From Calditrichota bacterium (GTDB taxonomy: Bacteria > Electryoneota > AABM5-125-24 > Hatepunaeales > Hatepunaeaceae), in assembly GCA_018644935.1 (NCBI GenBank), contig JABGPL010000011.1, positions 1 through 64,000 of the forward strand: a stretch of DNA of 64,000 nucleotides, read 5' to 3'. Under the pieces are notes generated by a model, which had not been told where the DNA came from, made no database searches, and saw nothing but the letters and a program-made list of their open reading frames with translations. The position numbers were made by a program, and so were the translations under genes. Position 1 is the stretch's first letter, and each line of letters begins with the position of its first letter. Shown here piece after piece: positions 21,529 through 64,000 of this stretch.

Positions 21529-22035
21529 TTATTCAATTGTAATCAGTAAATCACCCTTGTTAACAGCCATACCTGGAGAAACAGCACACTTTTTCAGAAT
21601 ACCGTCAATAGGAGCAGAGATTTCATTTTCCATTTTCATAGCTTCAACAACAATTACTCCCTGTCCTTTCTGTACCGTTTCACCTACTTCCCGCAGGAGT
21701 TTTACAATTAATCCTGGCATAGGAGCCTTAATCTCTCCTATCTTTTCATGTTTCTGAGCCTTGTTTCCCATCAATTTTCTAATTGAATCTGTTCTTTCAT
21801 CACATATTTTTAGATCAACACTATCGCCATTAACCTTGATATTATGCATATCAGAGTTATGGTTAACTTCAATTTGGAATGGATGGTGATTGATTTTCAG
21901 GGATGTTACACCATTCAGGTTGCTGTAACTGTCAAGTTTAATTGAATCACCATTAATGGATGGATTTTCCTCCCATCCGGCAGATGGAATTTCAACGTTG
22001 TGACGCTTGCCTTTCAAATCTATGAAGAATTTCAT
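21529..22035 (-). CDS. Biotin/lipoyl attachment-domain protein (BCCP-like subunit)
   Basis: GEIKAPMPGLIVKLLREVGETVQKGQGVIVVEAMKMENEISAPIDGILKKCAVSPGMAVNKGDLLITIE; EAMKM biotinylation motif. Confidence 0.93.
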   Translation of the reverse strand: MKFFIDLKGKRHNVEIPSAGWEENPSINGDSIKLDSYSNLNGVTSLKINHHPFQIEVNHNSDMHNIKVNGDSVDLKICDERTDSIRKLMGNKAQKHEKIGEIKAPMPGLIVKLLREVGETVQKGQGVIVVEAMKMENEISAPIDGILKKCAVSPGMAVNKGDLLITIE

Positions 22036-22286
22036 GTTAACTCAGAGTTCCAAAAAAATTGATGATAATTAAAACTAAGATAAAATCGTTCGAATTCAAA
22101 CGATAAGAAAATTCTATAATTTACTCAGGACAAATATTTTGTTATAAATCTTGACAATTTAGCGTTGAGACGTTAACTTTGGTCATTCAAAAGTTTGTAG
22201 CAGGCTCTCCTTGTTTGATTTAGTGGGAGTTCAAAAGTCCTGAATTTGATTTTCTTCAGTGTTTCAGTGTTTAAGATTAGGCCGAG

Positions 22287-36575: not shown

Positions 36576-36608
36576 ACCCCGGCCGTTTTCCAGCCGGGGT
36601 TTTTTTTA
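36576..36608 (+). terminator. Rho-independent terminator of the C25-like gene
   Basis: ACCCCGGC-cgttttcca-GCCGGGGT followed by TTTTTTT. Confidence 0.9.
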
Positions 36609-37171
36609 TGCTTTTCTGATGATCTATAAAAAGTATATGCAAAAGATGTGGTTTGTATATTTGTAATATATTGTTAATAAAATAAATAACTACTAATAAA
36701 ACTTGTAGAAACCAGTGTAACTATTTGTATGTTGATTGATACTGGAAATGGAGCCGATATCAGAATTGTTATCAATAAAATATGTTTACACGTAATTATT
36801 TTACAATTAAAGCTTTAGAAGTAAATGATGCATATCTGAATCGAATTGATAAAATTCAGTTGTGCTACAATATCAATTGCTATATTACATTTAGGGTTCA
36901 GAATAGACAAAATCTGTTTAGTACTTTGAAAAAAAATGAATTATTTTGATAAATTTTGACATGGTTACTTTTATAGATCACAATAATGTCTTACTTTGCA
37001 AAATCCGTATAAGGAGTAGACTATCCTTGACGACAATTTCTAAACGCGAACAAAACTACAGATTGGGAAAAATGACTGATTTCGTTGGAATAATCATAAC
37101 TTTTAGTATTAGTGTCTTTTTCTTGGTTGTTTTTTCAGCACAGCGTTTATATATTAAATTGCTCGATTTTC

Positions 37172-37258: not shown

Positions 37259-37344
37259 TTTTAAGTTTAAATACCGTTGATTTACATCAATTTATGGTAC
37301 CTTTTGTAGATAACTCTTTCAACAAAACTAAGAAGGTGTGCCAA

Positions 37345-40300
37345 ATGGAACGTTCCGCGATCGTTTCCGTTGTGCTAATGTTTGCGCTGCTTTTAGCAGC
37401 CGGACCAGTTTTTGCTCAACATTTTGTTTTAGACCCGACCAATGGGGATACACATACACTTTTTGTGGCCTCAGCCACAATTGCAGGTGATGACCTCATA
37501 GAGAATGATGAAATTGGAGTATTCACCACCGCAGGGACCGTAAGAGGTCTGGCAGTGGTTGAAGAGAATGGGGCTATCCCCGAAATCACTGTTTTTGGTC
37601 AGGGTGACGAAGATGGTGGTTTTACCGATGGTGAAATCATGGCATTCAAGATCTGGGATGCCTCAGCCGAAGAAGAGATGACGGCATTTGTTTCCGGAGG
37701 TGCGATTATTACCTTTACCGCAAATGATGCTGACGCTATCTCTTTGGAAGTTCTTGATCAGCACTTTCAATATCAAACCACCGATGCAGAACACTTTCTG
37801 ATTGTCTCTTTGGCTGATATTGATGGAACTTCAATTGCTATCGGCGACGAGATCGGTGTATTTACACCTGATAACGTTTGCGCAGGTGGTTACGTCATCA
37901 CAGAATTAGATGGTGGCGATTTATTCCCTGCTGGTTTTAGCGCTTATGGTGGTCCAACGGGATTCTCGGTCGGTGAAGCACTTTCGTTCAGATTATATGA
38001 TTCGAGCGAGGATACAGAGCATAATGCCAACGCGGACTGGGCGAGCTTCGATGCTCAGACCTTCCTGCCGGATAGAGTATCACCTATTTCTCGACTGTTT
38101 GCTTATACAAACCCAATACCAGCAATTCGGTTTTCAAATGCTTCTCTTGACTTTGGGGATGTCTACTTGCTTGATGGTGAAAGTTCCAGCATCAACTTGA
38201 CAATCCTGAACAATGGGTTTGACGATTTGACGGTGAACTCTATTTCGAGCAATAATAATGCATTTACATTCGACTTTGATGACAATGCATTTGTCCTCGC
38301 ACCGGGTGCGAGACGGGTATTTAACATTACCTTCGTTCCCCCCGAGGCTGGAAATATCGAAGGTGTGTTAACAATCGATAGTGATGATCCAAATGATGAA
38401 GAAGTTACTATCAACATGGAAGGTGTTGGTGTCGTGGCTGAACCTGCAACTCTTGAACTTGAGTCTGATTCAAATGATTTTGGGAGTTTGAATGTTGGCA
38501 GCGAGTCAACCTGGAACATGCACATAACCAACACTGGATATTACAATTTGATTGTTAACAGCATCGTTTCCAACGAAGATGCCTACGAAACAAATTTTGG
38601 TGGTGAACCCCAGGTTATTGCTGGAGGTGCTAGTTTGGACGTTACTGTAACGTTTGCACCTACTCTTCGCGGACAGCAACCTGCTACATTGACCATAACG
38701 AGTAATCATGGTGGAAATTTAGGTGTTGAAACGGTGGTTAACGTAACTGGTTATGGTAATGCGCCAGATATTGCACTGGATTCTGCAGCCGTCCGATTTG
38801 GTGGTGTAATCATTGATGAAGAAGGAACTGCCGTAGTTACAATCACCAACGTTGGTGAACTGAATCTGACAATTCAAGACGTTACAATACCTGGTGATAT
38901 ATTCAGCTCAGATTGGGCTGGTCAACTGGTACTTGCTCAGAACGCGGAAGTCGAGGTGACATTAACATTTGCTCCGACTGCTGAACAAGATTATCAAGAA
39001 ACCATGACGATTACATCAAACGATCCGGGTAACGGTTCGCTCGAGATTCCATTAACAGGTACCGGTGATCCTTATCCACCAGCCGATCTTTCAATTGCTG
39101 TTGGTGACCAGAACCACAATTTCGGTGAAACGACCGTTAATTCTGATGCAGAATGGGTTTTCCCAATTACAAATAATGGTTATCTTGACCTGGTAATCAG
39201 CAATATAACTTCTGATGAAAACACATTCACTACCGATTTTCCTGGTGGAGATGGATGGACAATTGCAAGAGGCCAATCTCAGAATGTGACAGTGACTTTT
39301 GCGCCAACTGAAGTTGGAGATCGGAACGGCACATTAACAATTACTTCAAACGATCAGGGACAAGATGGATCGACTGATGAAGTGACAGTTGCTGGTACTG
39401 GTGTTGCCGAACAATTACCTCAGATTTCTACAAATCCGAATAATGTTGCATTCCCGGATAAAATTATTGGGGAGAGTACGACCGAGATTGTCACAATCTC
39501 AAATATTGGTCAATTAGAATTGACCGTCTCAAACGTTGCAATCGTGAATGACGCCGGCGGCGTTTTTGGCGTTTTGTACGAAGGTAATGCCTGGGACGGA
39601 AATGTAGTGATTCAACCCGCTGCATCTATTCAGGTTTCAGTATCTTTCTCGCCTGATGCAGTTCAAGATTTCACAGGTGATCTGAGAATAACTTCTGATG
39701 ACAGGGATGATGGAACTATTGATGTCGAACTAACGGGTACCGGTCTTGTACAGCCTCCCCCAGACATTTTCGTAGCCCAGGGAGATTTATCCCATAACTA
39801 TGGAAATGTACTATTCGGAACACAGACAACATGGCAGTTTGATATTACGAACAATGGTTATCTTGATCTTGTTGTTGACAGCATTTTAACAAGTCTCGGA
39901 GTGTACACAACAAATCTATCGGAAGATGGTGTAACCCTAGCGGGAGGTGAGTCCACAACAATCACTGCTACATTTGCACCTGTCGCGGGTGTGGAATATA
40001 ATGGTACTCTCACAATATATTCAAACGATGACAATGATAATGAGAGTCCAATTCGCATCACAGTAACTGGTGTCGGTCTTGCGCCGAGAATCACAGTTGC
40101 CCCTGAAAATGTCGCATTTGGTGATGTTGTTGCAGGAAATTCCGAAACAAGTAGCATTCGGATAAGCAACCCAGGTAGTTCTGCCTTAACAGTCACTGAA
40201 ATTCAGTTTAACAATAATGTCTTCAGTGGTGATCTTGGTGGTCAGCAGGTTATTGCCGTTGGTCAATTTATTGACCTCGAATTGACCTTTACCCCGACTG

Positions 40301-52300: not shown

Positions 52301-55300
52301 TACTTATCAACTCTGCACTTCTCGATGGTGAATTACTTGAAATCCTTGATGAAATCAGTGTATTCACTCCAGGTGGATTATGTGCGGGTGCTGTTGTAAT
52401 CGGTGCAGAAAATTTTGACGAACCATTCCCAACCGCTCTCGCAGCATGGGGTGATGATTCTCAAACTGAAGATGTTGTTGAAGGTTTCCAGGCTGGTGAA
52501 GAAATGTCATTCCGCTATTGGGATTCATCAGCTGAAATTGAATATGAAGCATTTATTGATCAAATAATTGTTGGTGGTCGTAATTGGAATGTAGATGGGT
52601 TTAATGTAATCACCCTGTCAGTAACTACTGCCGAAACTCCAATAATTAATGTAAGTCCCGCAACAATTGCGTTTGAAGAAACGGTCAATGGCTTCACTAG
52701 CGAAGTTCAATTTGAAGTGTCAAACGTAGGTCCTGAACTTCTGTCAGTAACAGACATTGTCTCAACAGATGAGGCGCACTTTACAATTGATTTCCAGAAT
52801 GGATTTAATTTAGCACAGGGTGCATTTACCACATTTACCGTAACGTTCGCACCAGATGCAGTTGACGAATTTAGTGCTGAACTTCAAATAACTTCAAACT
52901 CGGATGGTGGAGGAGTACTGGTTGTACCAATGACTGGTGCCGGTATTGCGCCACCACCTCAAGAGTTGTCATTGTCTCAAAACAATTGGGACTTTGGAAA
53001 CGTGCAGATTGGTCTACCCCAGACGCGGGAAGTAACCTTTACAAACATTGGGTATGAAGACTTAACTATCAACAGTGTAGTGTCTGATAATGCAGCGTTT
53101 TCCACCGATTTCCCGAATAATGATGTAGTACTTGCACTTAACGAAACTCAGGTTCTAACGATTACCTTTGATCCGGATGAAGCTGTTCAATACGATGGTA
53201 TTCTTACCGTTAACTCGGACAATCTTGGTCAGCAAAGTCAAACTGACATTGCGGTTACAGGTGTTGGTGTTGTTGAAGGCGATCCTGGAATTTTGGTCAC
53301 GCCAGATCTCGTCTCATTTGATAATACCCTCGTTAATCAGGTCGGCACATCAACGATAAGGGTTGAGAACAATGGTGCCGGGGTTTTAAATGTAACTGAT
53401 ATGACAACTGGTGGAGATATATTTGGTATAGATTTCCAGGGTGCATTTTCATTAGACCCGAATCAATCAGTTACGATTGATATGACATTCTCACCAACTG
53501 ATGAGCAAGTTTACAACGGATCATTAACTATATCATCGAATGCCGTTGGAGATGAGCAATACATCTTGCCACTTGTCGGTGTTGGTTATATGATCCCCGC
53601 GCATTTTGAGTTTACAACAACAGGTGATGATGCATCTATTCTGGTTAATTCAGCTACGCTTGACGGTGAATCCCTTGTATTTAGTGATGAAATCAGTGTG
53701 TTCACACCTGGAGGCATTTGTGCCGGTGCGGTGATAATCGGTGCGGATGATATTAACTCACTATTCCCAGCGGGATTTTCTGCATGGGGTGATGATTCGC
53801 AGACTGAGGATGTTATTGAAGGTTTCGCGCCAGGTGAAGAAATGACTTTCCGCTATTGGGATGCGTCGGCAGAAGCTGAATATCCGGCATCTATTGAGGA
53901 AGTAATTGTAGGTGGCAGCACATGGAATGTTGATGGTCTCAACGTAATAACCCTTGGTGGGAGTACTGTCGAAATCCCGGATCCTCATTTTGAATTCGTA
54001 TCTACCGGTGATGATGCTTCAGTTTTGATTAATACAGCACTTCTTGATGGTGAATCTCTTGAACTTTATGATGAAATTGCGGTATTCACGCCTAACGGTA
54101 TTTGTGCTGGTGCAGTTGTCGTCGGTTTAGAAAATGCCGATGATCCATTCCCAACAGCTCTTGCAGCCTGGGGGGATGACTCACAAACAGACGAAATTGT
54201 TGAAGGTTTTACAGCTGGTGAAGAGATGTCATTCCGCTATTGGGATGTATCTGCAGAACTTGAAATTGAGGCATTTATTAATGAAATTGTGATTGGTGGA
54301 CGCATTTGGAATGTGGATGGTTTTAACGTCATCACATTGGGAGCCAATACCGCTGAAACAGCAATTTTAAATGTAATTCCTGACCCAGTTTCATTTGATG
54401 AGACAGTTAATGGCTTCTCAAGCGAAATAGAAGTTGAAATTTCTAATACTGGTCCCGAAGTACTGCATGTTTCAAATATCGTTTCAACCGATCCGGATCA
54501 CTTCTCACTTGATTTCTCCTCCGAATTAGATCTAAATCAGGGTGAATTCTCTACCTTTATAGTAACATTTGCACCTGATGCAGTTAGCGACTTTAACGCT
54601 GATCTTCAGATCACCTCCAATTCTGAAGGTGGGGGTGTTGAAGTTATTCCTATGACGGGTACCGGTATTGCGCCACCTCCTCAAGAGTTATCACTGTCAA
54701 TTGCAGCTTGGGATTTTGAGGAAGTGCAAATTGGATTACCACAAACTCAAGAAGTAACACTATCAAATATTGGTTATGAAGACCTAACGATTAGTCAGGT
54801 CATTTCAGATAATGCTGCATTTACATCTGATTTCCCAGAGAATGATGTGATTCTTGCTCGCACTGAAAGCACAATCTTGACAATTACATTTGATCCGGAA
54901 GAGGCTGTTCAGTACAATGGAATAATCACTGTTCACTCAGATAATCTTGGAGAAGCTACACAGACAGACATAACTGTGGCTGGTATTGGTGTTGTTCAAG
55001 GTGATGCTGAAATTGCTGTCACTCCAGAACTTGTTTCCTTTAATAATACACTTTTGGGTGGATCTGCAACCTCCTCTGTAACCATTGAAAATACTGGTGC
55101 GGGAACGTTAAATGTCTCAGATATGGCGACAGACATCGAAGAATTTAGTGTTGACTTCCAGAATGCTTTTGACCTGAATCCAAATGAGACTATTACTGTC
55201 GAACTAACTTTTTCACCAATTGCCAATCGAGTCTATAATGGCTCGTTGACCATAGCTTCGAATGCGGTCAATGATCAGGAATTTAGTGTTCCTCTTGTTG

Positions 55301-58300
55301 GTGTTGGCTATGCACCAGATGTCCATTTTGATTTTGTTACAACTGGCGATGACGCATCCATTTTGGTAAACTCTGCGCTGCTTGATGATGAATCACTCGT
55401 TCTATTTGATGAAATCGCAGTCTTCACACCAGCTGGATTATGTGCAGGTGCTGTGGTTATTGGTGCTGATGATATCAATTCACCGTTCCCGGCAGGATTT
55501 TCTGCTTGGGGTGATGATCCACAAACGGAAGGAGTTGTGGAAGGTTTCAGTGCTGGTGAAGAAATGACCTTCAAGTATTGGGATGTATCTGCTGAAGCTG
55601 AATATGCTGCCACAATTTCAGAGGTGCTAGCAGGTGGGAATGTTTGGAATCCAGATGGCTTTAATGTCATCACACTGGGAGGCACTTCACGGGTACCTCA
55701 TTTTGAATTTGTTACAACCGGTGATGACGCATCAATTTTGATAAACTCTGCTCTACTTGACAATGAATCACTCGAGCTATTTGATGAGATCGCAGTCTTC
55801 ACACCGGGTGGACTATGTGCTGGTGCAGTGGTTATTGGTGCAGATGATATAGATTCACCATTCCCAGCAGGATTTTCTGCATGGGGTGATGATTCCCAAA
55901 CTGATGATGTAGTAGAGGGGTTTGTAGCTGGTGAGGAAATGTTATTCCGTTATTGGGATGTTTCTGCTGAACAGGAATATGATGCCACTATTTCAGAGGT
56001 GCTTGCAGGTGGAAATGTTTGGAATCCAGATGGTTTTAATGTCCTTACACTTGGGGGTACTTCAGCTGAACCACATTTTGATTTTGTTACGACCGGTGAT
56101 GACGCTTCTGTTCTGATTAACTCCGCTCTTCTTGACGGTCAATCTCTTGAATTGTACGATGAAATCGGGGTATTTACACCAGCTGGAACTTGTGCTGGTG
56201 CCGTTATAGTTGGATCCGCAGATCCAGATGCACCATTCCCTGCAGGACTATCAGCATGGGGTGATGATTCCCAAACTGATGATGTAGTAGAGGGATTTGT
56301 TGCAGGTGAGGAAATGTCTTTCCTCTATTGGGATACATCCGCTGAAATTGAAATTGAGGCTTCAATTAGTTCAATAGTATTCGGAGGCAGTGTTTGGAAC
56401 ACTGATGGATTCAATGTAATCACACTCGGAGCCTATACTGGTGATGCTCCTGCAATTTCAGTATCTGATGTTGAATTTGATTTCGGTGAAGAAATCATTG
56501 GACACAGGGAGCTAAGGACATTAACTGTAACCAATATTGGCGCTCTTAATCTCGAAATTGAACCATTTGCTGATATTCCAGGATTTTTGATTTCTCCGTC
56601 AGCGGATATCGTAATAGAACCCGGCAATGTACTTGATATTTCAGTAGTATTCCAGCCACTTGAAGAGATAGCATACGACGCTGTTCTTCAATTAAATTCA
56701 AATGCAGAAAACTTACCACAAATAGATGTCAGCCTTGTCGGTGTTGGTATACCTGGTGTCTTAAGATGGGATTACATCGAAACCGATATCAGTATGTCAT
56801 TGGAAATTGAAAATGCTACCATAGATGACACACCGCTGGTCGAAGGTGACCAGATTGCCGCCTTTACTGTTGAAGGTTTATGCGCAGGTGCCTCAGCTGT
56901 TCCAGCACAGTTCCCATTTACGATGGAAATCTGGCGTGATGACCCAACAACCAATGATGTTGATGGATTTGCTGAGGGTGAAGAAATAAGTTATCTGTAC
57001 TGGGATGAAGAAGGTCAACGAGAGTGGACAGCATTAGCAACTTATGTTTCAGGTCCGGAAGTATTTGAATCTGATGGAGCTTCTGTAATACAATTAAACG
57101 CCTTCTCACGTGGAAACAGGTTCAGCTTTATACAAACTGAAACTACCCATTCTTTGATTGTCAATCAGGCACTGTTGGATGAAGCTTCCATCGAGGATGA
57201 TGATGAAATTGGTGTTTTCACTCCTGGTGGAGTATGTGCTGGTGCAATCGCCTTTGGAGCAGCCTATGAAAATCCGGAATTCCCGTTAGGGATTGGAGTT
57301 TGGAATGATGATGCCGGTACAGATGAGGTTGAAGGGTTTGTTCAGGGTGAGGAGTTCTCATATCTGATCTGGGACTATTCTGCACAGGCTGATTATGAAG
57401 CCACAGCAGAATATATCGATGGATTGTCCGTCTGGACTCCGAATGGATTCTCCGTGTTAAATCTTAATGCGACTTCTATTGCTGATCAAACCATTGCATT
57501 GTCGAGTAGTGACTTTGACTTTGGTCCCGTGATTGTTGGAAACGAAAGCACCCAACAGATTACAATCACAAATGAAGGTGACTTAGACCTTACAATTACC
57601 GAAGGTTCAATCAATCCTGAAGTCTTTACCGTGAGTTTCGAAGGACAACCCGGAGTACCTCAAACTGTACTGAGTGCAAACGAAGAATTGATACTGGATC
57701 TCACATTTACCCCAGACGCAGGTGGAGATTTTGAAGGCACATTGGAAATCACAAGTGATGATCCTCTGAATGCTGTAGTCGTTGTCACATTAGTGGGTTC
57801 TGGTATTGAAGCCGGACCACCGGTAGTTGCACTTTCTACAGACCAAAATGATTTTGGGGATGTAATTGTTGGTCAGTTTGAAGAATGGACTCTCTCGATT
57901 CTTAATGAGGGTGGTGCAGATCTTGAGATATTAGATGTTACTTCTTCTGATGTTGCGTTTGACTTCTCAGGACCGACAGAGAATAATGTAGTTGCCGGAT
58001 TCTCAACAGAATTGAAAGTTACTTTCCGACCAAGTGCTGAAGCAGGTTTCAATGGTGTTCTCGAAATCAGTACTAATGATGAGGAAACTCCAGTTGTTGA
58101 AGTACAACTTTCCGGTAATGGTGTGGTCACAGATGTCCAATGGCCATTTACAATGACCGCCAACAATATGTCGATTGTAGTCACCTCTGCCACGATCAAT
58201 GGAGATGAATTAGACAACAATTATGAAATCGGCATACTCACGCCCGATGGTGTTTCGGCTGGTGCAGCAATTATTCCTGTCGCAAACCCATTCCCATTGA

Positions 58301-61300
58301 ATGTTAATGCTATCGGTGATGATGGAGGAACTGGTGAGGTTGAAGGTTTTGTTGCTGACGAGACATTAAGTTATAGAGTTTGGGATGCGGCTGGCAGGAT
58401 GGAGATTTCAGCCGTTCCAACTTACGGTGTTGGAGAGGGAGTTTATGCTGATGGTGGATATGCAGAAGTAGGATTAATGGTACTCTTTGGTTTACAGGAA
58501 AATCAACACTTCCAGCATTTTGAAACCGACGTAAGTCACTCACTGGCAGTTGAATCTGCAATCCTTGATGGCTTACCTTTATATGAATCTGACGAAATCG
58601 CGGTCTTTACTGAGGTCGGATTATGTGCTGGTGCAAGCGTTATTACTGAATTGGGGGCAGAAATCGGAATAGCTGCCTGGGGTGATGATGCTGCGACAGA
58701 AAATATAATCGAAGGATTCCAACAGGGTGAAGCATTTGAATACAGGTATTGGGATGCATTTGCCGAGATAGAAATTTCTGTTGACCCGACTTATATTCAG
58801 GGACCAGAGGTCTATACAGATAATGGGTTCACGATTCTTTCTCTGAACGTTGATCTTGATCGTCGGTCAAGTATTGTAGTCATAGATGATCCTCATGACT
58901 TTGGTCAGGTTGAAGTGCTGCAATCAGCAGAATGGAGATTGAACATAACCAACGAAGGGGATGGAGATCTTCATCTCCAGAATGCTACCATAGAAAATGA
59001 TGCTTTCACAGCAGAATTTGATGATATTTGGTTGAACCCAGGTATAAGTACCGATTTGGTAGTTACTTTCAATCCTATTCTGATTGGTGATTACGCAGAG
59101 GTTATGACCATAATTTCAAGTGATGAAAACAACCCAGAGATCACAATAGATCTCACAGGTACTGCATTCTACACACCTCGAGCGAATATCGTTGTCAGTG
59201 AGGAGTCAATAGATTTTGGAGAAGTATTTGTTGAAGCGAGAGGCGAACAAACAGTTACCATTACCAACACAGGTGATGCGAATCTCATAGTTGCTCGAAT
59301 TAATACTGACAGTGATTTATTCACACTCGATGTATCAGTGCTTCCATTAGAATTTTATTGGGAATTCACTGAAACAGCTTTAACAATGGACTTAACAATT
59401 TCTGAAGTCCTCCACTTGGGGGATCCTCTAGGAGTTGGTAACTCTGTTGGAGTCTTTACACCTTATGGTCAGTGTGCTGGATTTGGTACAGTTGCAGTAG
59501 ACGAAGTGTTAGCCTTTACTGCCTATGGAGATGATCCAGAGACCGAAGGAATCGAAGGCTTCCGTGAAGGTGAAGAGCTGAATTTCCGAATTTGGGATGA
59601 CGCTGAAAGTAGAGAATATGTCGCTGATCCAACATACAATGAGGGAGCTGGAGTATTTGGTGATGGCACAGCATCTGATGTTGGCCTGAACTTAGAAGAA
59701 TTTGAAGCGGTTATAGGTATTCAGAATCCTGTAATTCTGCTTCCCGGTCAGGTCATAGAGGTTGTAGCCGGCTTTGAGCCGGACGTAGAGGGAGATCATG
59801 CAGCGACTCTGATTATTGCATCAAATGATCTCGATGCAGCTGAAATCGAGCTGCCGCTTACCGGTGTTGGTGTATTGACACCTCCTCAAATTAGTCTTAC
59901 CGAGGATGCTCATGATTTCGGTGATGTCCTTGTAGATGAAGAACTGGTTTGGAATCTCGAACTAAACAACCTTGGTCAACAACCATTATCAATTACTGAC
60001 ATCACAATCGAAGGTGAGTATTTCACACGAGTATTTGATGGCGTCTTTGAAATTCCACGGGCTGGTCAGGTAATTGTACCGGTCACATTTACACCACTCG
60101 ATCAGGGTGACGTAGTTGGAACAATCGTTATTTTCTCGAATGATGAAAATCAACCTGAAGTAACAGTTTCATTAAACGGACGAGGCACAATGCCTCTGCT
60201 CCGTGTAGATCCTGATGCCTTTGCATTTAACGATGTCATCCAGCTGGTGTCTGAGATGCAAGAGCTTACCATTTACAACGATGGTAACATTACTCTCGAT
60301 ATTGAGAGCTTGACCACAACGAACGAAGTATTCTGGGTAGAGGTAGATATACCGGCAGAGTTCAACTGGGTATCTGTTGAAACTGACAATAGCCTCGTGG
60401 CAACTATCGAATCTGCCGTGATTGACGGAAATTCACTCATAGCTGAGGACTACATAGGCGTGTTTACCACAGATGGAATTTGTGCCGGTTACGTCCAACC
60501 AGCTGAGTTCCCCGTCGAATTGACAGTATACGGTGATGATGGCCAGAATCAGGAAGTTCAGGGATTTGCAGCTGGTGAAGCTCTCGAGTTCCGCTACTGG
60601 GATGCAAGTGCAAGCTCAGAAAGTGTTGCATCAGCCGATTATTCCAATGGTGATGGTAACTATCAGGCAGGAGCCGCACATACACTTGCTCTGACATCAT
60701 TCCAGGGATTTGCACCATTGCATGCTGATCAGATTCTCAGTATAGAAGCAGGTGGTAGCCATACCGTTGGTGTATACTTTGAACCTGTTGAGCAGATTGC
60801 CTACGATGAGACACTCACAATTGAGTCAAACAATCCTGTTGCCCATGGTGGTACTGAACTTGATATCCCACTTACCGGTAGCGGTTTGAATATCGATCCG
60901 ATTGTCTTAAACCCAATTGATCAGGTCGTTGTAGATGAAGACCCGGGTGTTATTGTTATCGGTGATCTGGATGATGTATTCTCAGATGCTGATGGCGATG
61001 CCATGACATACACCTTCGCAGGTAACCCGGACGAACTAAACCTCGCTCTGGATGGAGACAATGTTCTTTCATTTGATCCCTCTCCTAATTATAATAACGC
61101 TGATGGTGTTGTTGTAACATTTACAGCAACAGATGATGATCAGGGATCTGTTGATCATGAAGTAACATTTATCATTAATCCAATCAATGACGCACCAGTT
61201 GTTGTTGCCCCAATTGATGATCTTGTTGAAGACGAAGATCCCGGTGATGTCATCATTGCCGATCTGGATGATGTCTTTAGCGAAATTGAAGATGAAGCTA

Positions 61301-64000
61301 TGATCTTCTCGGTTGAGGGTGCTCCTGAAGAATTAGGTATGTACATCAATCAGGATAATGTTCTTGGCATAAATCCAGTTCTTGACTTTGTATCCCCTGA
61401 TGCAATAATTATCACTGTATCAGCTGAAGATGAACAGGGTCTTATCGGAATAGATGAGTTTACAGTTACGATTAATCCCATCAACGATGCACCTGTTGTC
61501 CTTAACGCCATTGATGATCAGACCGTTGATGAAGATCCTGAGCTGACAATTGTCGCGGATCTTGATGTCGTATTCTTTGATGTTGATGGTGATGAATTGA
61601 CCTTTGGATTTGTAGATGCACCGCAGGAAATTAATATGGCGATTGATCAGGATAATGTTCTCAGCTTCAACCCGAATGAGAACTACAATCTTGAAGATGG
61701 TGTCACCATAACAGTATCAGCAGAAGATATTGATGGTGAAATTGCATCTGATCAGTTCATCTTAATTATTGTTCCGGTCAATGATGCACCGTTTGTCGCA
61801 AACGAGATTGCAGAGATAAACATTGATGAAGATCATGGTAGATATGAAGTTGGTGATTTGAATGTGATATTCGATGATGTTGAAGGTCATGCAATGCGCT
61901 TTAGTTTTGCAGGAGCACCCGATGAATTGAATATGGAAATCGACATCATCACAAAGATTCTATTCTTCCATGCTGACGACAATTTCAATCTTCCTGATGG
62001 TGTTGATATCACCATAACCGCGGATGACAGACACGAGGGAATTACAGACTATGTCTTCAGAGTTGTGATAAACAATGTCCCTGATGCTCCAATAGTTGTT
62101 CAACAACTATTTGACGTCCGGTTCAATGAAGATAACGGGATGGTCATATTCCCGGACATGGATGACATATTCTCTGACTCCGATAGTGAAGTATTAACCT
62201 ACACTATCACTGAAGGCTTGGAAGAGTTTAACCTCCAGATTGATGAAGAGAATGTCCTTTCCATGAATCCGGATCAGGACTTCAATATCGATGAGGGTTC
62301 ACAGGTTACAATAACTGCAACTGACGACACCGACCTCTCCGTCGCTGAAAGCTTCAATATAGCGTTAACTCCTGTTAATGATCTACCTGTAGCCGGTGAT
62401 ATTGATGATATAGTTGTGGATGAAGATTCCGGATTTGTTGTAGTTGCCGATTTGGATGATGTGTTCTCAGACGTTGACGGTGATGCTCTGGCATATACAA
62501 TCTCTGATGCACCGGCAGAAATCAATATGGTCGTTGACGGTGATGCAGTATTATCATTTGATCCGGACGCAGACTTTGTCATTCCGAATGGAGTTGACAT
62601 TACAATAACGGGTACTGATCCAGATGCAGAAACAGCAGAAATCACATTCAATCTCACAATAACGCCATTCAACGATGCGCCTGTTGTACAGGCTCCGTTT
62701 GAGGATGTATCAATTGATGAAGATGCCGGCCGAGTTGTCGTTGCTGACCTCGATGATGTGTTCTTAGATGTTGATGGAGATGTTCTCACCTACACATTTG
62801 TGAGTGATATTGCGGAACTTAATGTTGACATTGATGATGATAATGTCCTGTTCTTCAATCCTGACGAAAACTTCAACCTTGCTGGTGGCACGGATATTAC
62901 AGTTAGTGCTGAAGACGATGATGGTGAGATAGTTTCCGATGTTGTGAACATTATTGTTGTCCCTGTCAATGACCAACCCACAATAATTACCGCAATTGAA
63001 GACATAACGCTTGCCGAAAACCCTGGTTTGGTAGAGATTGCCGATTTGGATGCTGTGTTCAATGACAATGACCTTGGAGATGCTGATCCAGATGTTCTTA
63101 CATTTACATTTGAAGGTGCTCCAGAAGAAATAAACATGGTCATAGATAATGACAATGTTCTATCGATTGAACCTAATGCTGATTTCAATGTGGAAAACGG
63201 TGTTGAGATAACCATAGTTGCTACTGATGAGGCTGACGAATTTGCACAAGACATATTTGTGCTGATTATTACTCCTTCTCCTGCAGAAATATTTGTCTCG
63301 GACGATGCACATAACTTTAATTTAGTTTATGCAGGTGAGACTGCTGACTGGGAATTCCAGATATCAAATATTGGCACAGGTGTTTTGACGATTGATGCGA
63401 TCGAGCTTACTACTGAGTATTATACTGTTGATTTTGATCAACCAGTAGACCTTCAACGCGACGAGAGTTTACCTGTTACGGTAACATTTGCTCCTGATGG
63501 TCTTGGATTCTTCCAGGATCAGATAACCATTTTTTCAAATGACAATGGTAATCCAGAAGTAGTTGTCAACCTGATTGGTGAAGGAAATCGTTCTATCATT
63601 CGAGTTGAACCTGATGAACACGACTTTGGAGATGTTCTGGCCGGTTCAAGTACAAGAAGAGAGCTTGAGATATTTAATGACGGTAACGTTGACCTTGATA
63701 TCTCTGATGTAACAGTCAGCGATGAGCAATTCCGATTTGAACTTGGTGCACTTCGTGAATTTGATTGGGAATTTATAGATACCGGTATCAACATGAATGT
63801 TGTAGTTGGTAGCGCAGATTTAGATGGTGAAGCTTTGGTAGATGGTGACCACGTAGGTGCTTTCACCTCTGGTGGTATATGTGCCGGCTCCGTGCCAGTA
63901 GCAGAGGAGATGTTCCTGACCGTATGGGGTGACGATCCTGACGCTGGTGGGACTCAAGGTTTCAATGAAAATGAGGAAATTGAATTCCGGTATTGGGATG
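37345..64000 (+). CDS. Giant secreted repetitive surface protein (at least 8,885 aa; 3' end outside window): ASH/choice-of-anchor-D-like repeats, VFT/CAGA modules, cadherin-like repeats
   Basis: Absent from ORF track because it has no in-window stop. RBS AAGGTG then ATG MERSAIVSVVLMFALLLAAGPVFAQ (signal peptide). I read the frame to the last base (..FNENEEIEFRYWD) and saw no stop. Confidence 0.93.
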   Translation, partial: MERSAIVSVVLMFALLLAAGPVFAQHFVLDPTNGDTHTLFVASATIAGDDLIENDEIGVFTTAGTVRGLAVVEENGAIPEITVFGQGDEDGGFTDGEIMAFKIWDASAEEEMTAFVSGGAIITFTANDADAISLEVLDQHFQYQTTDAEHFLIVSLADIDGTSIAIGDEIGVFTPDNVCAGGYVITELDGGDLFPAGFSAYGGPTGFSVGEALSFRLYDSSEDTEHNANADWASFDAQTFLPDRVSPISRLFAYTNPIPAIRFSNASLDFGDVYLLDGESSSINLTILNNGFDDLTVNSISSNNNAFTFDFDDNAFVLAPGARRVFNITFVPPEAGNIEGVLTIDSDDPNDEEVTINMEGVGVVAEPATLELESDSNDFGSLNVGSESTWNMHITNTGYYNLIVNSIVSNEDAYETNFGGEPQVIAGGASLDVTVTFAPTLRGQQPATLTITSNHGGNLGVETVVNVTGYGNAPDIALDSAAVRFGGVIIDEEGTAVVTITNVGELNLTIQDVTIPGDIFSSDWAGQLVLAQNAEVEVTLTFAPTAEQDYQETMTITSNDPGNGSLEIPLTGTGDPYPPADLSIAVGDQNHNFGETTVNSDAEWVFPITNNGYLDLVISNITSDENTFTTDFPGGDGWTIARGQSQNVTVTFAPTEVGDRNGTLTITSNDQGQDGSTDEVTVAGTGVAEQLPQISTNPNNVAFPDKIIGESTTEIVTISNIGQLELTVSNVAIVNDAGGVFGVLYEGNAWDGNVVIQPAASIQVSVSFSPDAVQDFTGDLRITSDDRDDGTIDVELTGTGLVQPPPDIFVAQGDLSHNYGNVLFGTQTTWQFDITNNGYLDLVVDSILTSLGVYTTNLSEDGVTLAGGESTTITATFAPVAGVEYNGTLTIYSNDDNDNESPIRITVTGVGLAPRITVAPENVAFGDVVAGNSETSSIRISNPGSSALTVTEIQFNNNVFSGDLGGQQVIAVGQFIDLELTFTPTDIDDFEGILTVISDAENDQSLDIPLTGAGVSAFQFTQTGESTTLIINSGLINNEAMIEGDEVGVFTPDGVCAGGSVLGANGFDSPIGFSAWGDDLGTQDVVEGFTRNEAFAFRLWDRSTGTEYVAYENWSPEVVPVWTANGGPYVILELLGYDDPPPITRLSDSNLNFGDVYLFDGESSARDLTIRNIGGANLTIQSVVSDNDAFSLDFPNQIILQPDASTTVTITFVPPELGDISGVVTVTSNDPRNGEMTVNMAGVGVEAPAPDIGVNEESHAFGTIEVGSPLTWTLVVTNNGYEALVIDDVQSGNAAYTTDFAGDQVTLARLETMDVVVTFDPATAGDFNTNLTITSNNGGNANSEYNVALSGAAIAPDIAVTPSPVVFDDTIFGEEDTATLTISNDGAVDLVISSITIPDGVFSSDWADQQTVVPGEEYVLNLTFAPIAAQDYEVVATIASNDPVDGNLNVTLQGTGLPQPAPNLVIADEDLTHNFGEVFVGNGRTWQFTITNDGYQDLVISDIESNNNVFITNHPGGDGWTIAGGGAQVVTATFTPAAEQAYNGTLTVVSNDDGNANTRTNITVEGSGTFEELPEIDFSTLNVAFGDVIFGEAGNSSVVVTNVGDADLSVQGAVLVNNDDDNVFEMSWDGAEVLVPNASLTIDLTFTPNAVAAFDAILRITSDDADEASVDINITGTGVVQPPPEITVAEDDQTHNFGNVIVGQDVAWQFNITNTGYQDLVVDSILASNGVFTTNLSEDGVTITRGQSTAITATFTPIAGVEYNGTLSIYSNDDEDEQSPVVITVTGVGLTPNIVVAPENVSFGDVAAGATETSTLRISNTGGAALTVTELQFNNAFFGGDLGGQQVIAAGAFLDVDLTFTPNDIDDFEGVLTIISDAENDGDLTVNLTGSGVTAFQFTQTGDNVPIIVNAAFINNQAMVEGDEIGTFTTGGVCAGSAIIGVGGFNQALGFAAWADDDNTGNVVEGFVEDEAFEFRLWDRATGTEYIAFENWDSEEIPVWVSGGGPFILDELLGYDVSPPIIRLSDASFNFGNVFVFAGENSTRDLTITNIGGEDLTVQSVVSDNDAFSLDFPEQIVLQPEASTTVTVTFVPPDVNDFAGVITVTSDDPRNGEATVNMAGVGLEAPAPDLVVNDDVHAFGTIEVGSPVTWTLEITNNGYVALVIDDIQSGNAAYTTDFAGDPVTLARLETLDVVVTFDPETAGQYISSITITSNDNGVANSELAIGLLGSAIAADIAVAPSPVVFDDVIISEEGAATLTISNEGDVDLVISSITIPGDIFSSDWNAEQTVAPDEQYVLNLTFSPIAAQDYEVEATIVSNDPVDGNLNVTLQGTGLPQPPPNMVIANDDLSHAFGEVFVDNNRAWQFTITNDGYQDLVISDIESSDDVFTTNFPGGDGWTIAGSGGTQVVTATFTPSAAEAYNGTLTIVSNDDGNADTRTPITVTGSGTFEQLPEIELSSLNVAFGNIIVGEAGATSVQVTNVGDSDLSVQGAVLVNNDDDNVFGMSWDGAAVLEANASLTIDLTFTPNAVQAFDAILRITSDDADEGTVDVNLTGTGLTPPPANIVVAEGDLTHAFGEVALGAEGTWELQISNDGYLDLEIDEILSSHAVFTTNFPQEGATIAGGASATYTVTFAPTAIADYTETLTINSNDDQLVINVTGSGIGPEIATDPGSIAFGEVRLGNSGTETLQIQNTGGAVLTVTEVQFDNGVFTSNFDAEQTIDPDQSISIEVSFAPDNISDFNGVMTIVSDAENDQSLDVNLTGTGIAHFEYELTEQSHNIIVVEATIDDEQLAAGDEVAVFTPGGICAGSGSFVGPGESIGLAAWGDDLGTEPIEGFANGEVIYFKIWDNSAQAEYDAFADWTDGFSTPNWVNNGLGQIDLLSANSQPTPLLELSAAELAFGDVFVFAGESSTQELTISNVGNADLTVSNIVSDNDAFTTDYDQDIVIAPRESAVVTITFIPPNTGEIAGTLTITSDDANNAETTVNLTGTGVEAPAPDLALNANSHDFEIVQINSPEDWTMVVTNEGYQDLIVTGIASDNNVFSTDFAGDPVTIVKDASINVVVTFDPQTVDEFAGALTITSNTGGQEGTDTQVTLTGESIAPQIAVSPSPVVFDDTIFGEENQKVLTIRNNGAVDLTVTALTIPGDIFSSDFAGQVVLGQNEETAVTVTFAPAAEQAYNGVLTIESDDPLNGSLEVNLQGNGLAQPLPDLTIANEDLTHDFGNVLVDNTREWEFDITNDGYQDLVISNLESSIGQFTTDFPGGNGWTIAGGQSQTVTVTYAPDNDQLHEGELTVTSNDQGQDGSQVTISVVGQGTLEAVPSIAVNQESVAFGTVIIGEQGNATITVTNNGDANLNVTGVSIINDASGVFGFTWDGAAVLATNNTLEIALTFDPDAEANFTGDLRIASNDPENGVLIVPLTGAGQTPDPAEVSLSEASHGFGDVLVGDTDTWQVTIENVGYLPLTIDEIVSNNNVFTTDFPEDPVVITRGNSETYTVSFIPADVADYEATLSIISNDANSPTVINLTGSGVVPVIEAAPAQIAFGEAGLYDTQTVNLTISNTGGAVLNVTDVRIANDQEGRVFVSDFVEDQAINPDQSIEVAITFTPVAEDDYTGTVTITSDASNDQSLEIALSGSGVFPDPHYEVAQSADSHSIIVTEAILDGEDLVNGDEIATFTQDGLLAGAIVVIVGEDTGLAAWGDDTGTNDVVEGFASGEEMSFRYWDVSAQEEIEAEVSSIISGGINWSVNGFTILALSGISAPTPIITLDTESLDFGELIENFTSDLEFTITNIGVEPLVVSNIVSTDADHFTTDFDQEITLDPQASQVMTVTFAPDAAQLFEADIRITSNSPGRELKIVTVSGTGLVTPPPVLTLSENAHDFGEVQIGIPQTWDLTLSNTGYGTLNVSAINSSHEAFQTNLQDGGIDLGRNEQVVVTVTFDPQSVEVYDDELTIISNDNNQEGTETVVAIEGIGIQDGEPEVTANPAAIAFGEIVAGQSETVSLQISNTGSANLTVTNLLIGEEEFTVDFGGEQVLAPQGSFNVDVVFTPPDFQVYEGTLTIHSDDPNNAQLQVALSGEGVAPDEHYVVTQVADSHSIIVTSALLDGEDLVDFDEIGVFTPGGLLAGSSVIRIGEDIGMPAWGDDTGTQGEIEGFGAGEEMSFRYWDYSAQEEISAQVVSVNVGSLNWSVNGFTILSLSGISAPEPLIFVDPASLVFDDLVEFETSDLELTVRNIGVEVLTVSNIVSTDTDHFTINYDQEFTLDPEESRVFTVTFAPDTDQLFEAELRITSDSPGRELTTVPVSGTGLPTPPPLLTLSANSHDFGEVQIGIPQAWNITLSNTGYGTLIISEINPSHQDFTTNLQQGGVELTRNQTVVVSVTFDPQNEADYDETLTIVSNHNDEEGSETIVSVTGNAVAEGTPVISLNRGSIAFGEVLVGESGTATLRISNNGSANLNVTDLAIAGDVFGTDWGGAEVVAPQSSINVQVNFTPEDYIAYEGTLTVHSDDPQNAQIEIPLTGEGTRPPAHFEFVTTGENASVLINSATLDGESLELYDEISVFTPDGICAGATVIGEGNVDDPFPTALAAWGDDDQTNGVVEGFTAGEEMSFRYWDTSAEVEVEAFVDQIVVGGRTWNVDGFNVITLIANRAANPIINVTPATIAFDETVNGFTSVVEVQVSNIGTELLQVTNVVSADEDHFTVDFQNGFDLDQGEFYTLNVTFAPDAVADFNANLEITSNSVDGLEVVPMTGTGIAPPPQELTINPASLDFGEVLIGLPQTREITLTNIGYEDLTISQVVSDNAFFTTDFPNNDVVLARNVSTVLTVTLDPEEAIQYDGTLTVHSDNLGQDSQTEITVTGLGVTDGNAEISVTPDLVSFENTLFGQVSNATMTIENTGSAVLNVTDISADLNVFGVDFAGALSVNPNQTVTVDLTFAPVADQVYNGSITIASNAIDNESYNLPVVGVGILPAPHFEFTTTGDDASVLINSALLDGELLEILDEISVFTPGGLCAGAVVIGAENFDEPFPTALAAWGDDSQTEDVVEGFQAGEEMSFRYWDSSAEIEYEAFIDQIIVGGRNWNVDGFNVITLSVTTAETPIINVSPATIAFEETVNGFTSEVQFEVSNVGPELLSVTDIVSTDEAHFTIDFQNGFNLAQGAFTTFTVTFAPDAVDEFSAELQITSNSDGGGVLVVPMTGAGIAPPPQELSLSQNNWDFGNVQIGLPQTREVTFTNIGYEDLTINSVVSDNAAFSTDFPNNDVVLALNETQVLTITFDPDEAVQYDGILTVNSDNLGQQSQTDIAVTGVGVVEGDPGILVTPDLVSFDNTLVNQVGTSTIRVENNGAGVLNVTDMTTGGDIFGIDFQGAFSLDPNQSVTIDMTFSPTDEQVYNGSLTISSNAVGDEQYILPLVGVGYMIPAHFEFTTTGDDASILVNSATLDGESLVFSDEISVFTPGGICAGAVIIGADDINSLFPAGFSAWGDDSQTEDVIEGFAPGEEMTFRYWDASAEAEYPASIEEVIVGGSTWNVDGLNVITLGGSTVEIPDPHFEFVSTGDDASVLINTALLDGESLELYDEIAVFTPNGICAGAVVVGLENADDPFPTALAAWGDDSQTDEIVEGFTAGEEMSFRYWDVSAELEIEAFINEIVIGGRIWNVDGFNVITLGANTAETAILNVIPDPVSFDETVNGFSSEIEVEISNTGPEVLHVSNIVSTDPDHFSLDFSSELDLNQGEFSTFIVTFAPDAVSDFNADLQITSNSEGGGVEVIPMTGTGIAPPPQELSLSIAAWDFEEVQIGLPQTQEVTLSNIGYEDLTISQVISDNAAFTSDFPENDVILARTESTILTITFDPEEAVQYNGIITVHSDNLGEATQTDITVAGIGVVQGDAEIAVTPELVSFNNTLLGGSATSSVTIENTGAGTLNVSDMATDIEEFSVDFQNAFDLNPNETITVELTFSPIANRVYNGSLTIASNAVNDQEFSVPLVGVGYAPDVHFDFVTTGDDASILVNSALLDDESLVLFDEIAVFTPAGLCAGAVVIGADDINSPFPAGFSAWGDDPQTEGVVEGFSAGEEMTFKYWDVSAEAEYAATISEVLAGGNVWNPDGFNVITLGGTSRVPHFEFVTTGDDASILINSALLDNESLELFDEIAVFTPGGLCAGAVVIGADDIDSPFPAGFSAWGDDSQTDDVVEGFVAGEEMLFRYWDVSAEQEYDATISEVLAGGNVWNPDGFNVLTLGGTSAEPHFDFVTTGDDASVLINSALLDGQSLELYDEIGVFTPAGTCAGAVIVGSADPDAPFPAGLSAWGDDSQTDDVVEGFVAGEEMSFLYWDTSAEIEIEASISSIVFGGSVWNTDGFNVITLGAYTGDAPAISVSDVEFDFGEEIIGHRELRTLTVTNIGALNLEIEPFADIPGFLISPSADIVIEPGNVLDISVVFQPLEEIAYDAVLQLNSNAENLPQIDVSLVGVGIPGVLRWDYIETDISMSLEIENATIDDTPLVEGDQIAAFTVEGLCAGASAVPAQFPFTMEIWRDDPTTNDVDGFAEGEEISYLYWDEEGQREWTALATYVSGPEVFESDGASVIQLNAFSRGNRFSFIQTETTHSLIVNQALLDEASIEDDDEIGVFTPGGVCAGAIAFGAAYENPEFPLGIGVWNDDAGTDEVEGFVQGEEFSYLIWDYSAQADYEATAEYIDGLSVWTPNGFSVLNLNATSIADQTIALSSSDFDFGPVIVGNESTQQITITNEGDLDLTITEGSINPEVFTVSFEGQPGVPQTVLSANEELILDLTFTPDAGGDFEGTLEITSDDPLNAVVVVTLVGSGIEAGPPVVALSTDQNDFGDVIVGQFEEWTLSILNEGGADLEILDVTSSDVAFDFSGPTENNVVAGFSTELKVTFRPSAEAGFNGVLEISTNDEETPVVEVQLSGNGVVTDVQWPFTMTANNMSIVVTSATINGDELDNNYEIGILTPDGVSAGAAIIPVANPFPLNVNAIGDDGGTGEVEGFVADETLSYRVWDAAGRMEISAVPTYGVGEGVYADGGYAEVGLMVLFGLQENQHFQHFETDVSHSLAVESAILDGLPLYESDEIAVFTEVGLCAGASVITELGAEIGIAAWGDDAATENIIEGFQQGEAFEYRYWDAFAEIEISVDPTYIQGPEVYTDNGFTILSLNVDLDRRSSIVVIDDPHDFGQVEVLQSAEWRLNITNEGDGDLHLQNATIENDAFTAEFDDIWLNPGISTDLVVTFNPILIGDYAEVMTIISSDENNPEITIDLTGTAFYTPRANIVVSEESIDFGEVFVEARGEQTVTITNTGDANLIVARINTDSDLFTLDVSVLPLEFYWEFTETALTMDLTISEVLHLGDPLGVGNSVGVFTPYGQCAGFGTVAVDEVLAFTAYGDDPETEGIEGFREGEELNFRIWDDAESREYVADPTYNEGAGVFGDGTASDVGLNLEEFEAVIGIQNPVILLPGQVIEVVAGFEPDVEGDHAATLIIASNDLDAAEIELPLTGVGVLTPPQISLTEDAHDFGDVLVDEELVWNLELNNLGQQPLSITDITIEGEYFTRVFDGVFEIPRAGQVIVPVTFTPLDQGDVVGTIVIFSNDENQPEVTVSLNGRGTMPLLRVDPDAFAFNDVIQLVSEMQELTIYNDGNITLDIESLTTTNEVFWVEVDIPAEFNWVSVETDNSLVATIESAVIDGNSLIAEDYIGVFTTDGICAGYVQPAEFPVELTVYGDDGQNQEVQGFAAGEALEFRYWDASASSESVASADYSNGDGNYQAGAAHTLALTSFQGFAPLHADQILSIEAGGSHTVGVYFEPVEQIAYDETLTIESNNPVAHGGTELDIPLTGSGLNIDPIVLNPIDQVVVDEDPGVIVIGDLDDVFSDADGDAMTYTFAGNPDELNLALDGDNVLSFDPSPNYNNADGVVVTFTATDDDQGSVDHEVTFIINPINDAPVVVAPIDDLVEDEDPGDVIIADLDDVFSEIEDEAMIFSVEGAPEELGMYINQDNVLGINPVLDFVSPDAIIITVSAEDEQGLIGIDEFTVTINPINDAPVVLNAIDDQTVDEDPELTIVADLDVVFFDVDGDELTFGFVDAPQEINMAIDQDNVLSFNPNENYNLEDGVTITVSAEDIDGEIASDQFILIIVPVNDAPFVANEIAEINIDEDHGRYEVGDLNVIFDDVEGHAMRFSFAGAPDELNMEIDIITKILFFHADDNFNLPDGVDITITADDRHEGITDYVFRVVINNVPDAPIVVQQLFDVRFNEDNGMVIFPDMDDIFSDSDSEVLTYTITEGLEEFNLQIDEENVLSMNPDQDFNIDEGSQVTITATDDTDLSVAESFNIALTPVNDLPVAGDIDDIVVDEDSGFVVVADLDDVFSDVDGDALAYTISDAPAEINMVVDGDAVLSFDPDADFVIPNGVDITITGTDPDAETAEITFNLTITPFNDAPVVQAPFEDVSIDEDAGRVVVADLDDVFLDVDGDVLTYTFVSDIAELNVDIDDDNVLFFNPDENFNLAGGTDITVSAEDDDGEIVSDVVNIIVVPVNDQPTIITAIEDITLAENPGLVEIADLDAVFNDNDLGDADPDVLTFTFEGAPEEINMVIDNDNVLSIEPNADFNVENGVEITIVATDEADEFAQDIFVLIITPSPAEIFVSDDAHNFNLVYAGETADWEFQISNIGTGVLTIDAIELTTEYYTVDFDQPVDLQRDESLPVTVTFAPDGLGFFQDQITIFSNDNGNPEVVVNLIGEGNRSIIRVEPDEHDFGDVLAGSSTRRELEIFNDGNVDLDISDVTVSDEQFRFELGALREFDWEFIDTGINMNVVVGSADLDGEALVDGDHVGAFTSGGICAGSVPVAEEMFLTVWGDDPDAGGTQGFNENEEIEFRYWD
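37741..48270 (+). repeat. Four higher-order repeats of ~2.63 kb, each one VFT module plus seven ASH-like repeats
   Basis: Units begin near 37741, 40381, 43021 and 45641; same-slot repeats match across units (e.g. 'PSPVVFDDTIFGEE', 'FGTIEVGSPLTWTL', 'AFQFTQTG'). Confidence 0.85.
48271..55310 (+). repeat. Five higher-order repeats of ~1.33 kb, one (or two) VFT modules plus three ASH-like repeats
   Basis: Units begin near 48271, 49591, 50921, 52250 and 53595; same-slot motifs 'PAHFEFTTTGDDAS', 'GIAPPPQELSL', 'VSFDNTL'. The last unit has two VFT modules in tandem (~53602 and ~53980). Confidence 0.83.
55321..56430 (+). repeat. Three directly tandem VFT modules with no ASH repeat between them
   Basis: Copies at ~55321, ~55696, ~56071 (~375 bp period); near-identical DNA such as 'gatgattcccaaactgatgatgtagtagagggRtttgt' in copies 2 and 3. 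Confidence 0.85.
60904..63285 (+). repeat. Eight tandem cadherin-like repeats (~297 bp each)
   Basis: Repeated 'DEDPGxVxxADLDDVFSDxDGDxLTYTFxGAPxELNMxIDxDNVLSFNPxxNFNxxDGVxITITAxDDDG...INPINDAPVV'. Confidence 0.85.

What the first reader, a model, noticed from the sequence alone, without database searches (positions are those of the whole stretch)
37345..64000. Giant gene (at least 26.6 kb, at least 8,885 codons) missed by the ORF track
A single frame with a clear signal peptide and RBS runs to the right edge with no stop that I could find. The ORF track shows only out-of-frame and antisense shadow ORFs here. The protein combines ASH-like, VFT-type and cadherin-like repeats, which suggests an enormous secreted or cell-surface filament or adhesin. 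It starts ~800 bp downstream of a T9SS-tailed C25-like protein, so a T9SS tail on the unseen C-terminus is plausible.
Basis: partly seen in the sequence, partly recalled or inferred. Interest (0 to 1): 0.87.

Follow-up and report, generated by a model that had tools for sequence, protein, structure and literature searches.

The report
Giant lysine-free surface fibre gene
An uncultured bacterium of the poorly known phylum Electryoneota carries a real gene for a protein of more than 9,261 amino acids, a string of over 80 small domains probably exported to the cell surface as a long fibre, and its whole bacterial family makes several such giants that almost completely avoid the amino acid lysine.

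Summary
The giant ORF is real. ATG 37345 has an RBS and a signal peptide, and no stop occurs to the window end or to the contig end 1,127 bp further on. The product is at least 9,261 aa (982 kDa, pI 4.05), still open. It is tiled without gaps by 21 copies of an unnamed ~120-aa beta-sandwich domain ("VFT domain", after a VFTP motif; no Pfam, NCBIfam or PDB match), about 52 ASH/HYDIN Ig domains and 11 cadherin-like domains, in 7-ASH and then 3-ASH super-repeats. Repeats share no exact word of 61 nt or longer and show dN/dS of about 0.11, so a misassembled concatenation is very unlikely. Complete relatives (8,938 and 10,055 aa) end in T9SS sorting tails. An ortholog split over two contigs has the same upstream C25-like gene, and its second half ends in a T9SS tail. 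The genome sits in the family of Ca. Hatepunaea meridiana (Electryoneota). Giants of 2,500-10,800 aa occur in eight of its nine genomes (the ninth was not read), all lysine deserts (0.1-0.7% Lys; other proteins about 3-7%; Arg kept). Best reading: a T9SS-exported multi-Ig surface fibre. Adhesion is inferred. New variant of a known kind.

The parts
37345..64000 (+). Giant ORF, 9,261 codons to the contig end at 65127, still open; this is the window's part of it
37328..37342 (+). Ribosome-binding-site-like AAGAAGG upstream of ATG 37345
   Evidence: sequence
37345..37419 (+). Signal peptide, aa 1-25 (by eye)
   Evidence: sequence
37420..38124 (+). Two VFT domains in tandem at the N-terminus of the mature protein
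38146..48645 (+). Four super-repeats of seven ASH/HYDIN Ig domains plus one VFT domain (period about 875 aa)
48664..55308 (+). Super-repeats of three ASH domains plus one or two VFT domains (period about 444 aa)
55315..56454 (+). Three tandem VFT domains (375-bp DNA repeat, 2.7 copies)
56479..59166 (+). Mixed ASH/VFT region, collinear at 38% identity with orthologs in three other genomes of the family
59179..59877 (+). ASH domain with a VFT domain inserted inside it (nested domain)
60193..60888 (+). Second nested ASH(VFT) unit
60889..63276 (+). Eight cadherin-like (Big_9/Cadherin_4, tandem-95) domains
63310..64000 (+). ASH domain and start of a third nested ASH(VFT) unit; beyond the window come three more cadherin-like domains up to the contig end at 65127
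31446..36548 (+). C25-peptidase-like protein with T9SS tail; catalytic His motif GHG replaced by SSRG; its homolog lies directly upstream of the giant in another genome of the family

Best explanation
The gene encodes a giant (more than 0.98 MDa) extracellular fibre. SHOWN: one uninterrupted coding frame; a signal-peptide-like N-terminus; wall-to-wall small beta domains; old super-repeats under purifying selection; same-architecture proteins in the genome and family that end in type A-like T9SS sorting tails; an SprA translocon gene in the genome. INFERRED: the protein crosses the inner membrane by Sec, is exported by the T9SS through SprA using a C-terminal tail on the missing 3' part, and is held at the cell surface. 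ASH/HYDIN and cadherin-like domains form a long, strongly acidic, possibly Ca2+-stiffened stalk (84 domains seen, roughly 0.3 micrometre if each spans about 4 nm). The regularly spaced or ASH-inserted VFT domains are the recurring functional, probably ligand-binding, modules that attach the cell to particles, polymers or other cells. The lysine desert is a real property of these giants with unknown cause.
For: ORF integrity. Domains. VFT model pLDDT 95.3. Nested ASH(VFT) model matches HYDIN and CEP192 ASH domains (E 1e-5 to 1e-4 for the best). Complete relatives with T9SS tails: C158 4,384 aa, C160 7,812 aa; G002 10,055 aa, G003 8,938 aa, G006 7,301 aa, G002 7,312 aa. Ortholog: collinear 38% over 924 aa in G004, G005 and G007, C25-like neighbour conserved in G004 (36% over 1,702 aa), split ortholog's 3' half ends in a T9SS tail. 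T9SS: SprA (803 bits with neighbours) and at least 150 tails. Lysine 0.1-0.7% in giants of all eight genomes sampled.
Against: The C-terminus of this gene is not in the assembly, so its own T9SS tail is unseen. The genome is a 212-contig draft, 89.5% complete. The VFT domain has no characterised relative, so ligand binding is a guess. No expression, protein or microscopy data. The fibre length is an estimate, not computed from a model.
Confidence: 0.62

Rival explanations
1. A structural coat, sheath or S-layer-like matrix protein rather than an adhesin: the repeats self-associate to make an acidic outer layer.
For: Wall-to-wall repeats without recognised adhesive or catalytic domains; many paralogous giants per genome; T9SS is known to export S-layer proteins (PMC10202324); the Velamenicoccus giant ORF was proposed to form a coat (PMC10066038).
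Against: Super-repeats are 39-69% identical and arranged in varied orders, unlike a uniform S-layer subunit; VFT domains are placed at regular intervals like modules on a stalk.
Confidence: 0.25
2. A moving gliding adhesin of the SprB type, driven along the cell surface by the T9SS motor.
For: Giant repeat protein of T9SS type, SprA present.
Against: GldJ not found above its cut-off, only 19-27 bit fragments; sibling tails match Por_Secre_tail (type A-like), whereas SprB has a type B CTD (PMC10202324). The PorP/SprF search was uninformative because no control rang.
Confidence: 0.06
3. A prey- or partner-attachment protein of a symbiotic or predatory lifestyle, as proposed for giant proteins of Omnitrophota.
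For: Similar size class and surface role proposed there (PMC10066038).
Against: Nothing seen here shows host dependence; the 4.5-Mb genome is not reduced. Omnitrophota giants carry predicted membrane helices and few known domains; this one is Ig-type repeats.
Confidence: 0.08
4. Assembly artefact: separate genes or collapsed repeats joined in silico.
For: Draft genome; contig ends inside the gene.
Against: No exact repeat of 61 nt or more, one repeated 41-mer; one constant codon phase and no stop; giants of the same size class, complete in G002 and G003, in other independently assembled genomes.
Confidence: 0.02

Closest known systems
Giant T9SS adhesins such as SprB of Flavobacterium johnsoniae
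   Same: Very large repeat protein of an FCB-group bacterium, T9SS export (here by inference from relatives)
   Different: ASH + VFT + cadherin architecture; type A-like tail in relatives against type B in SprB (PMC10202324); GldJ not found; almost no lysine
Fibrillar adhesins (stalk plus adhesive domains; PMC8286594)
   Same: Tandem Ig-like stalk domains, Big_9 among them
   Different: No recognised adhesive domain; ASH/HYDIN stalk; VFT modules repeated along and inside the stalk
choice-of-anchor D / ASPM-SPD-2-HYDIN (ASH) repeat proteins (NF012200, PF22544, PF15780)
   Same: Dozens of matches far above cut-off
   Different: Size, super-repeat order, VFT inserted inside ASH
Giant ORFs of Omnitrophota (PMC10066038)
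   Same: Lineage-wide giant surface-type ORFs
   Different: Those reach 39,678 aa with predicted membrane helices and few annotated domains; here T9SS-type, Ig-tiled, conserved across a family
Giant1-5 extracellular proteins of Apilactobacillus kunkeei (PMC12863079)
   Same: Several giant extracellular proteins per genome, surface role
   Different: Beta-solenoid N-terminus, five consecutive genes, unrelated domains

Membership tests
ASH / choice-of-anchor D repeat protein | ASH-type Ig domains above curated cut-offs | tested here: met
   NF012200 816 and 832 bits against a cut-off of 45; PF22544 661 bits
Type IX secretion cargo (type A) | N-terminal signal peptide | tested here: met
   MERSAIVSVVLMFALLLAAGPVFAQ read by eye; no signal-peptide predictor available
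Type IX secretion cargo (type A) | C-terminal Por_Secre_tail sorting domain on this protein | tested here: inconclusive
   contig ends first; present on complete paralogs, relatives and the split ortholog's 3' half
Type IX secretion cargo (type A) | T9SS translocon in the genome | tested here: met
   SprA TIGR04189 over cut-off
SprB-type gliding adhesin | Gliding gene GldJ in the genome | tested here: not met
   only 19-27 bit fragments against a cut-off of 458; genome 89.5% complete
SprB-type gliding adhesin | Type B CTD with SprF/PorP-family partner | tested here: inconclusive
   TIGR03519 rang nowhere, controls included; sibling tails match PF18962
Fibrillar adhesin | Multiple stalk domains | tested here: met
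   52 ASH and 11 cadherin-like domains
Fibrillar adhesin | At least one known adhesive domain | tested here: not met
   no adhesive Pfam family among the hits; VFT domain is uncharacterised
Pup-proteasome lysine-desert proteins | Pup ligase in the genome | tested here: not met
   PF03136 no match while the Corynebacterium control rang; genome 89.5% complete

The most novel reading that the evidence does not exclude
A family of Electryoneota has built a multi-protein giant surfaceome (several 4,000-11,000-aa T9SS-exported fibres per genome) on a new beta-sandwich module that can be strung between, or inserted into, ASH Ig domains, and has purged lysine specifically (not arginine) from these proteins, pointing to an undescribed selective agent in the outer envelope such as a lysine-directed peptidase or lysine-modifying chemistry.
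Probability: 0.3. Interest if true: 0.8.

Novelty: new variant of a known kind. Interest (0 to 1): 0.6.

Why it matters
It adds a lineage-wide set of giant T9SS-type proteins in a phylum known mainly from draft genomes, points out a widespread unnamed FCB-group domain linked to T9SS tails, and raises a clean question: why do all these giants keep arginine but exclude lysine (9 in 9,261 residues)? The last point can be tested on any complete genome of the family. It also suggests that contig breaks hide the true length of such genes.

Tried and rejected
Continuation of the gene: no contig overlaps the contig end (36-mer, up to 3 mismatches). C161's 5'-open frame is a different, beta-helix-type protein. 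C184's open end (half a VFT domain plus T9SS tail, 157 aa) is a possible but unproven 3' end. Pupylation as cause of the lysine desert: no Pup ligase found. Codon or base bias as cause: positional base frequencies predict 3.1% Lys against 0.1% seen, while Asn is enriched. General loss of basic residues as sole cause: relatives keep 2.6-7% Arg with 0.1-0.2% Lys. Avoidance of gingipain-like C25 peptidases: 42 C25 domains in the genome, but the window's copy and most of the 12 loci read lack the GHG motif, so the idea is weak. Known fold for VFT: no PDB or viral match at E<=0.001. RNA element in the leader: no Rfam match at gathering level, weak hits only around the terminator-like hairpin. Papers on giant proteins in Electryoneota: none found in the held library.

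Full report
THE OBSERVATION. The window is bases 1-64000 of contig C13 (65,127 bp) in a draft genome of 4.54 Mb, 212 contigs, 89.5% complete. The frame opened by ATG 37345 contains no stop to 64000 and none to the contig end: 9,261 codons, still open. Ribosome-binding site and signal peptide are visible. At this base composition the chance of no stop is about 10^-251, the codon-position GC keeps one phase throughout, and other frames hold hundreds of stops. One 41-mer is repeated and no word of 61 nt, so assembly from ordinary reads should not be confused by the repeats. Super-repeats are 39-69% identical in protein, with dN of about 0.21-0.23 and dS of about 2: old duplications under purifying selection.

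ANATOMY. Profiles built from the protein itself tile it with no gap over 40 residues: VV, then four blocks of seven ASH domains plus one VFT domain (period about 875 aa), then blocks of three ASH plus VFT (period about 444 aa), three tandem VFT domains, a mixed region, nested units, eight cadherin-like domains, ASH, another nested unit and three more cadherin-like domains. Counting split ASH halves once gives 21 VFT, 52 ASH and 11 cadherin-like domains. Pfam and NCBIfam confirm the ASH/choice-of-anchor D and Big_9/Cadherin_4/tandem-95 domains.

THE VFT DOMAIN. The repeated ~120-aa unit (motif DEIGVFTPxGxCAG...AWGDD...EGFxxGEExxFRxWD) has no Pfam match, no convincing NCBIfam match and no solved relative by sequence. 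AlphaFold2 gives a confident beta-rich model (seven strands, pLDDT 95.3) without a PDB or viral match at E<=0.001. It is not a Venus-flytrap domain. In the late part of this protein, and in its complete paralog C158, the domain sits inside an ASH domain, between its halves; the composite model (pLDDT 86, pTM 0.55) matches HYDIN and CEP192 ASH domains. The VFT domain also directly precedes the T9SS tail in many ordinary exported-type proteins of this genome and occurs more rarely in other groups: Roseithermus, Ignavibacteria, Neomarinimicrobiota, Kiritimatiellota and others.

RELATIVES AND TAXON. In a scan of 61 genomes, the window's own and all eight other genomes of its family held 12-72 VFT matches each; it was sporadic elsewhere in the phylum and absent from the 22 genomes outside it (the first look caps the counts). 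Matching coordinates identify family member G006 as Candidatus Hatepunaea meridiana, phylum Electryoneota, and G016, same phylum but another family, as Candidatus Electryonea clarkiae. Giant ORFs in the family: 10,055 aa (G002) and 8,938 aa (G003), both complete with T9SS tails; at least 10,816 aa (G006, open); 7,301, 7,312 and others. G001 has 12 VFT matches but its loci were not read for giants. In the window's own genome: C160 7,812, C137 6,084, C155 4,791 and C158 4,384 aa, all with T9SS tails, and C162 4,544 aa, open.

ORTHOLOGY. Residues 6370-7290 align collinearly at 38% over about 924 aa with giants in G004, G005 and G007, against 29% to the nearest listed paralog in the own genome. 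In G004 a homolog of the window's C25-like gene lies directly upstream of that giant (36% over 1,702 aa). G004's giant is broken by a contig end; a second contig begins in frame with VFT/ASH domains matching the following part of the window's protein and ends in a T9SS tail. If the two halves are one gene, extrapolation puts the window's protein near 11-12 thousand residues. This is inference.

EXPORT. SprA is present and 150 Por_Secre_tails were scored (a limit of the search). GldJ was not found, so a canonical gliding machine is not supported. The C25-like neighbour has a T9SS tail but its catalytic His motif is SSRG instead of GHG; it is probably not an active peptidase. By eye a terminator-like GC hairpin followed by a T run lies at about 36576-36612, just after that gene; the scan listed no terminator there, perhaps because the loop exceeds its 8-nt limit. 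The two genes are therefore probably transcribed apart.

LYSINE DESERT. The protein has 9 lysines in 9,261 residues, with one lysine-free run of 2,218 residues; positional base frequencies predict 3.1%. Giants in all eight genomes sampled have 0.1-0.7% Lys while their median Arg is about 3-5%; other proteins have a median of about 3-7% Lys and smaller T9SS/VFT proteins about 1-2% (samples are small outside the own genome, and one genome had no other proteins in the stretch read). This protein itself is also low in Arg (1.35%). VFT proteins outside the family mostly have 1-5% Lys, the GC-rich Roseithermus and the GC-rich lineages being less informative (0.4% in Roseithermus). Pupylation is not the reason on present evidence (lysine deserts and pupylation: PMC10665810). 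No cause is shown.

MECHANISM. Best reading: Sec export, T9SS transit through SprA, surface retention as a long acidic fibre with ASH and cadherin-like stalk and repeated VFT modules. Export rests on relatives, adhesion on architecture. Rivals: coat or sheath protein, gliding adhesin, partner-attachment factor, artefact.

NOVELTY. Giant surface proteins are known in several lineages. The T9SS-Electryoneota setting, the VFT module with nested insertion, and the lysine desert were not found described in the library searched, which lacks most subscription papers and all preprints.

Noticed in passing
own genome G000, whole: 42 Peptidase_C25 domain matches in one 4.5-Mb genome, most of the loci read lacking the GHG catalytic motif: an expansion of C25-like, probably inactive, T9SS-type proteins.
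   Followed up: partly
   Followed up: partly
G000:C160, 3573-27008: Another giant of 7,812 aa, mostly ASH domains, complete with T9SS tail, without VFT domains.
   Followed up: partly
L036, L039, L040 (CAMBDS01): Public MAG titled 'Caldithrix abyssi DSM 13497 isolate TH-08apr19-15' belongs to the same family as Ca. Hatepunaea meridiana (Electryoneota), so its title looks wrong.
   Followed up: partly
window 36576-36612: Terminator-like GC hairpin with a T run after the C25-like gene, not listed by the scan; followed by about 730 bp without an evident gene.
   Followed up: partly
window 10273-13593: Tricorn-like protease (PD40, Tricorn_C1, PDZ_Tricorn, Peptidase_S41) on the same contig.
   Followed up: no
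G000:C184 contig end, about 21778-22248, minus strand: 5'-open fragment with half a VFT domain and a T9SS tail at a contig end: a candidate for the missing 3' end of one of the open giants.
   Followed up: partly
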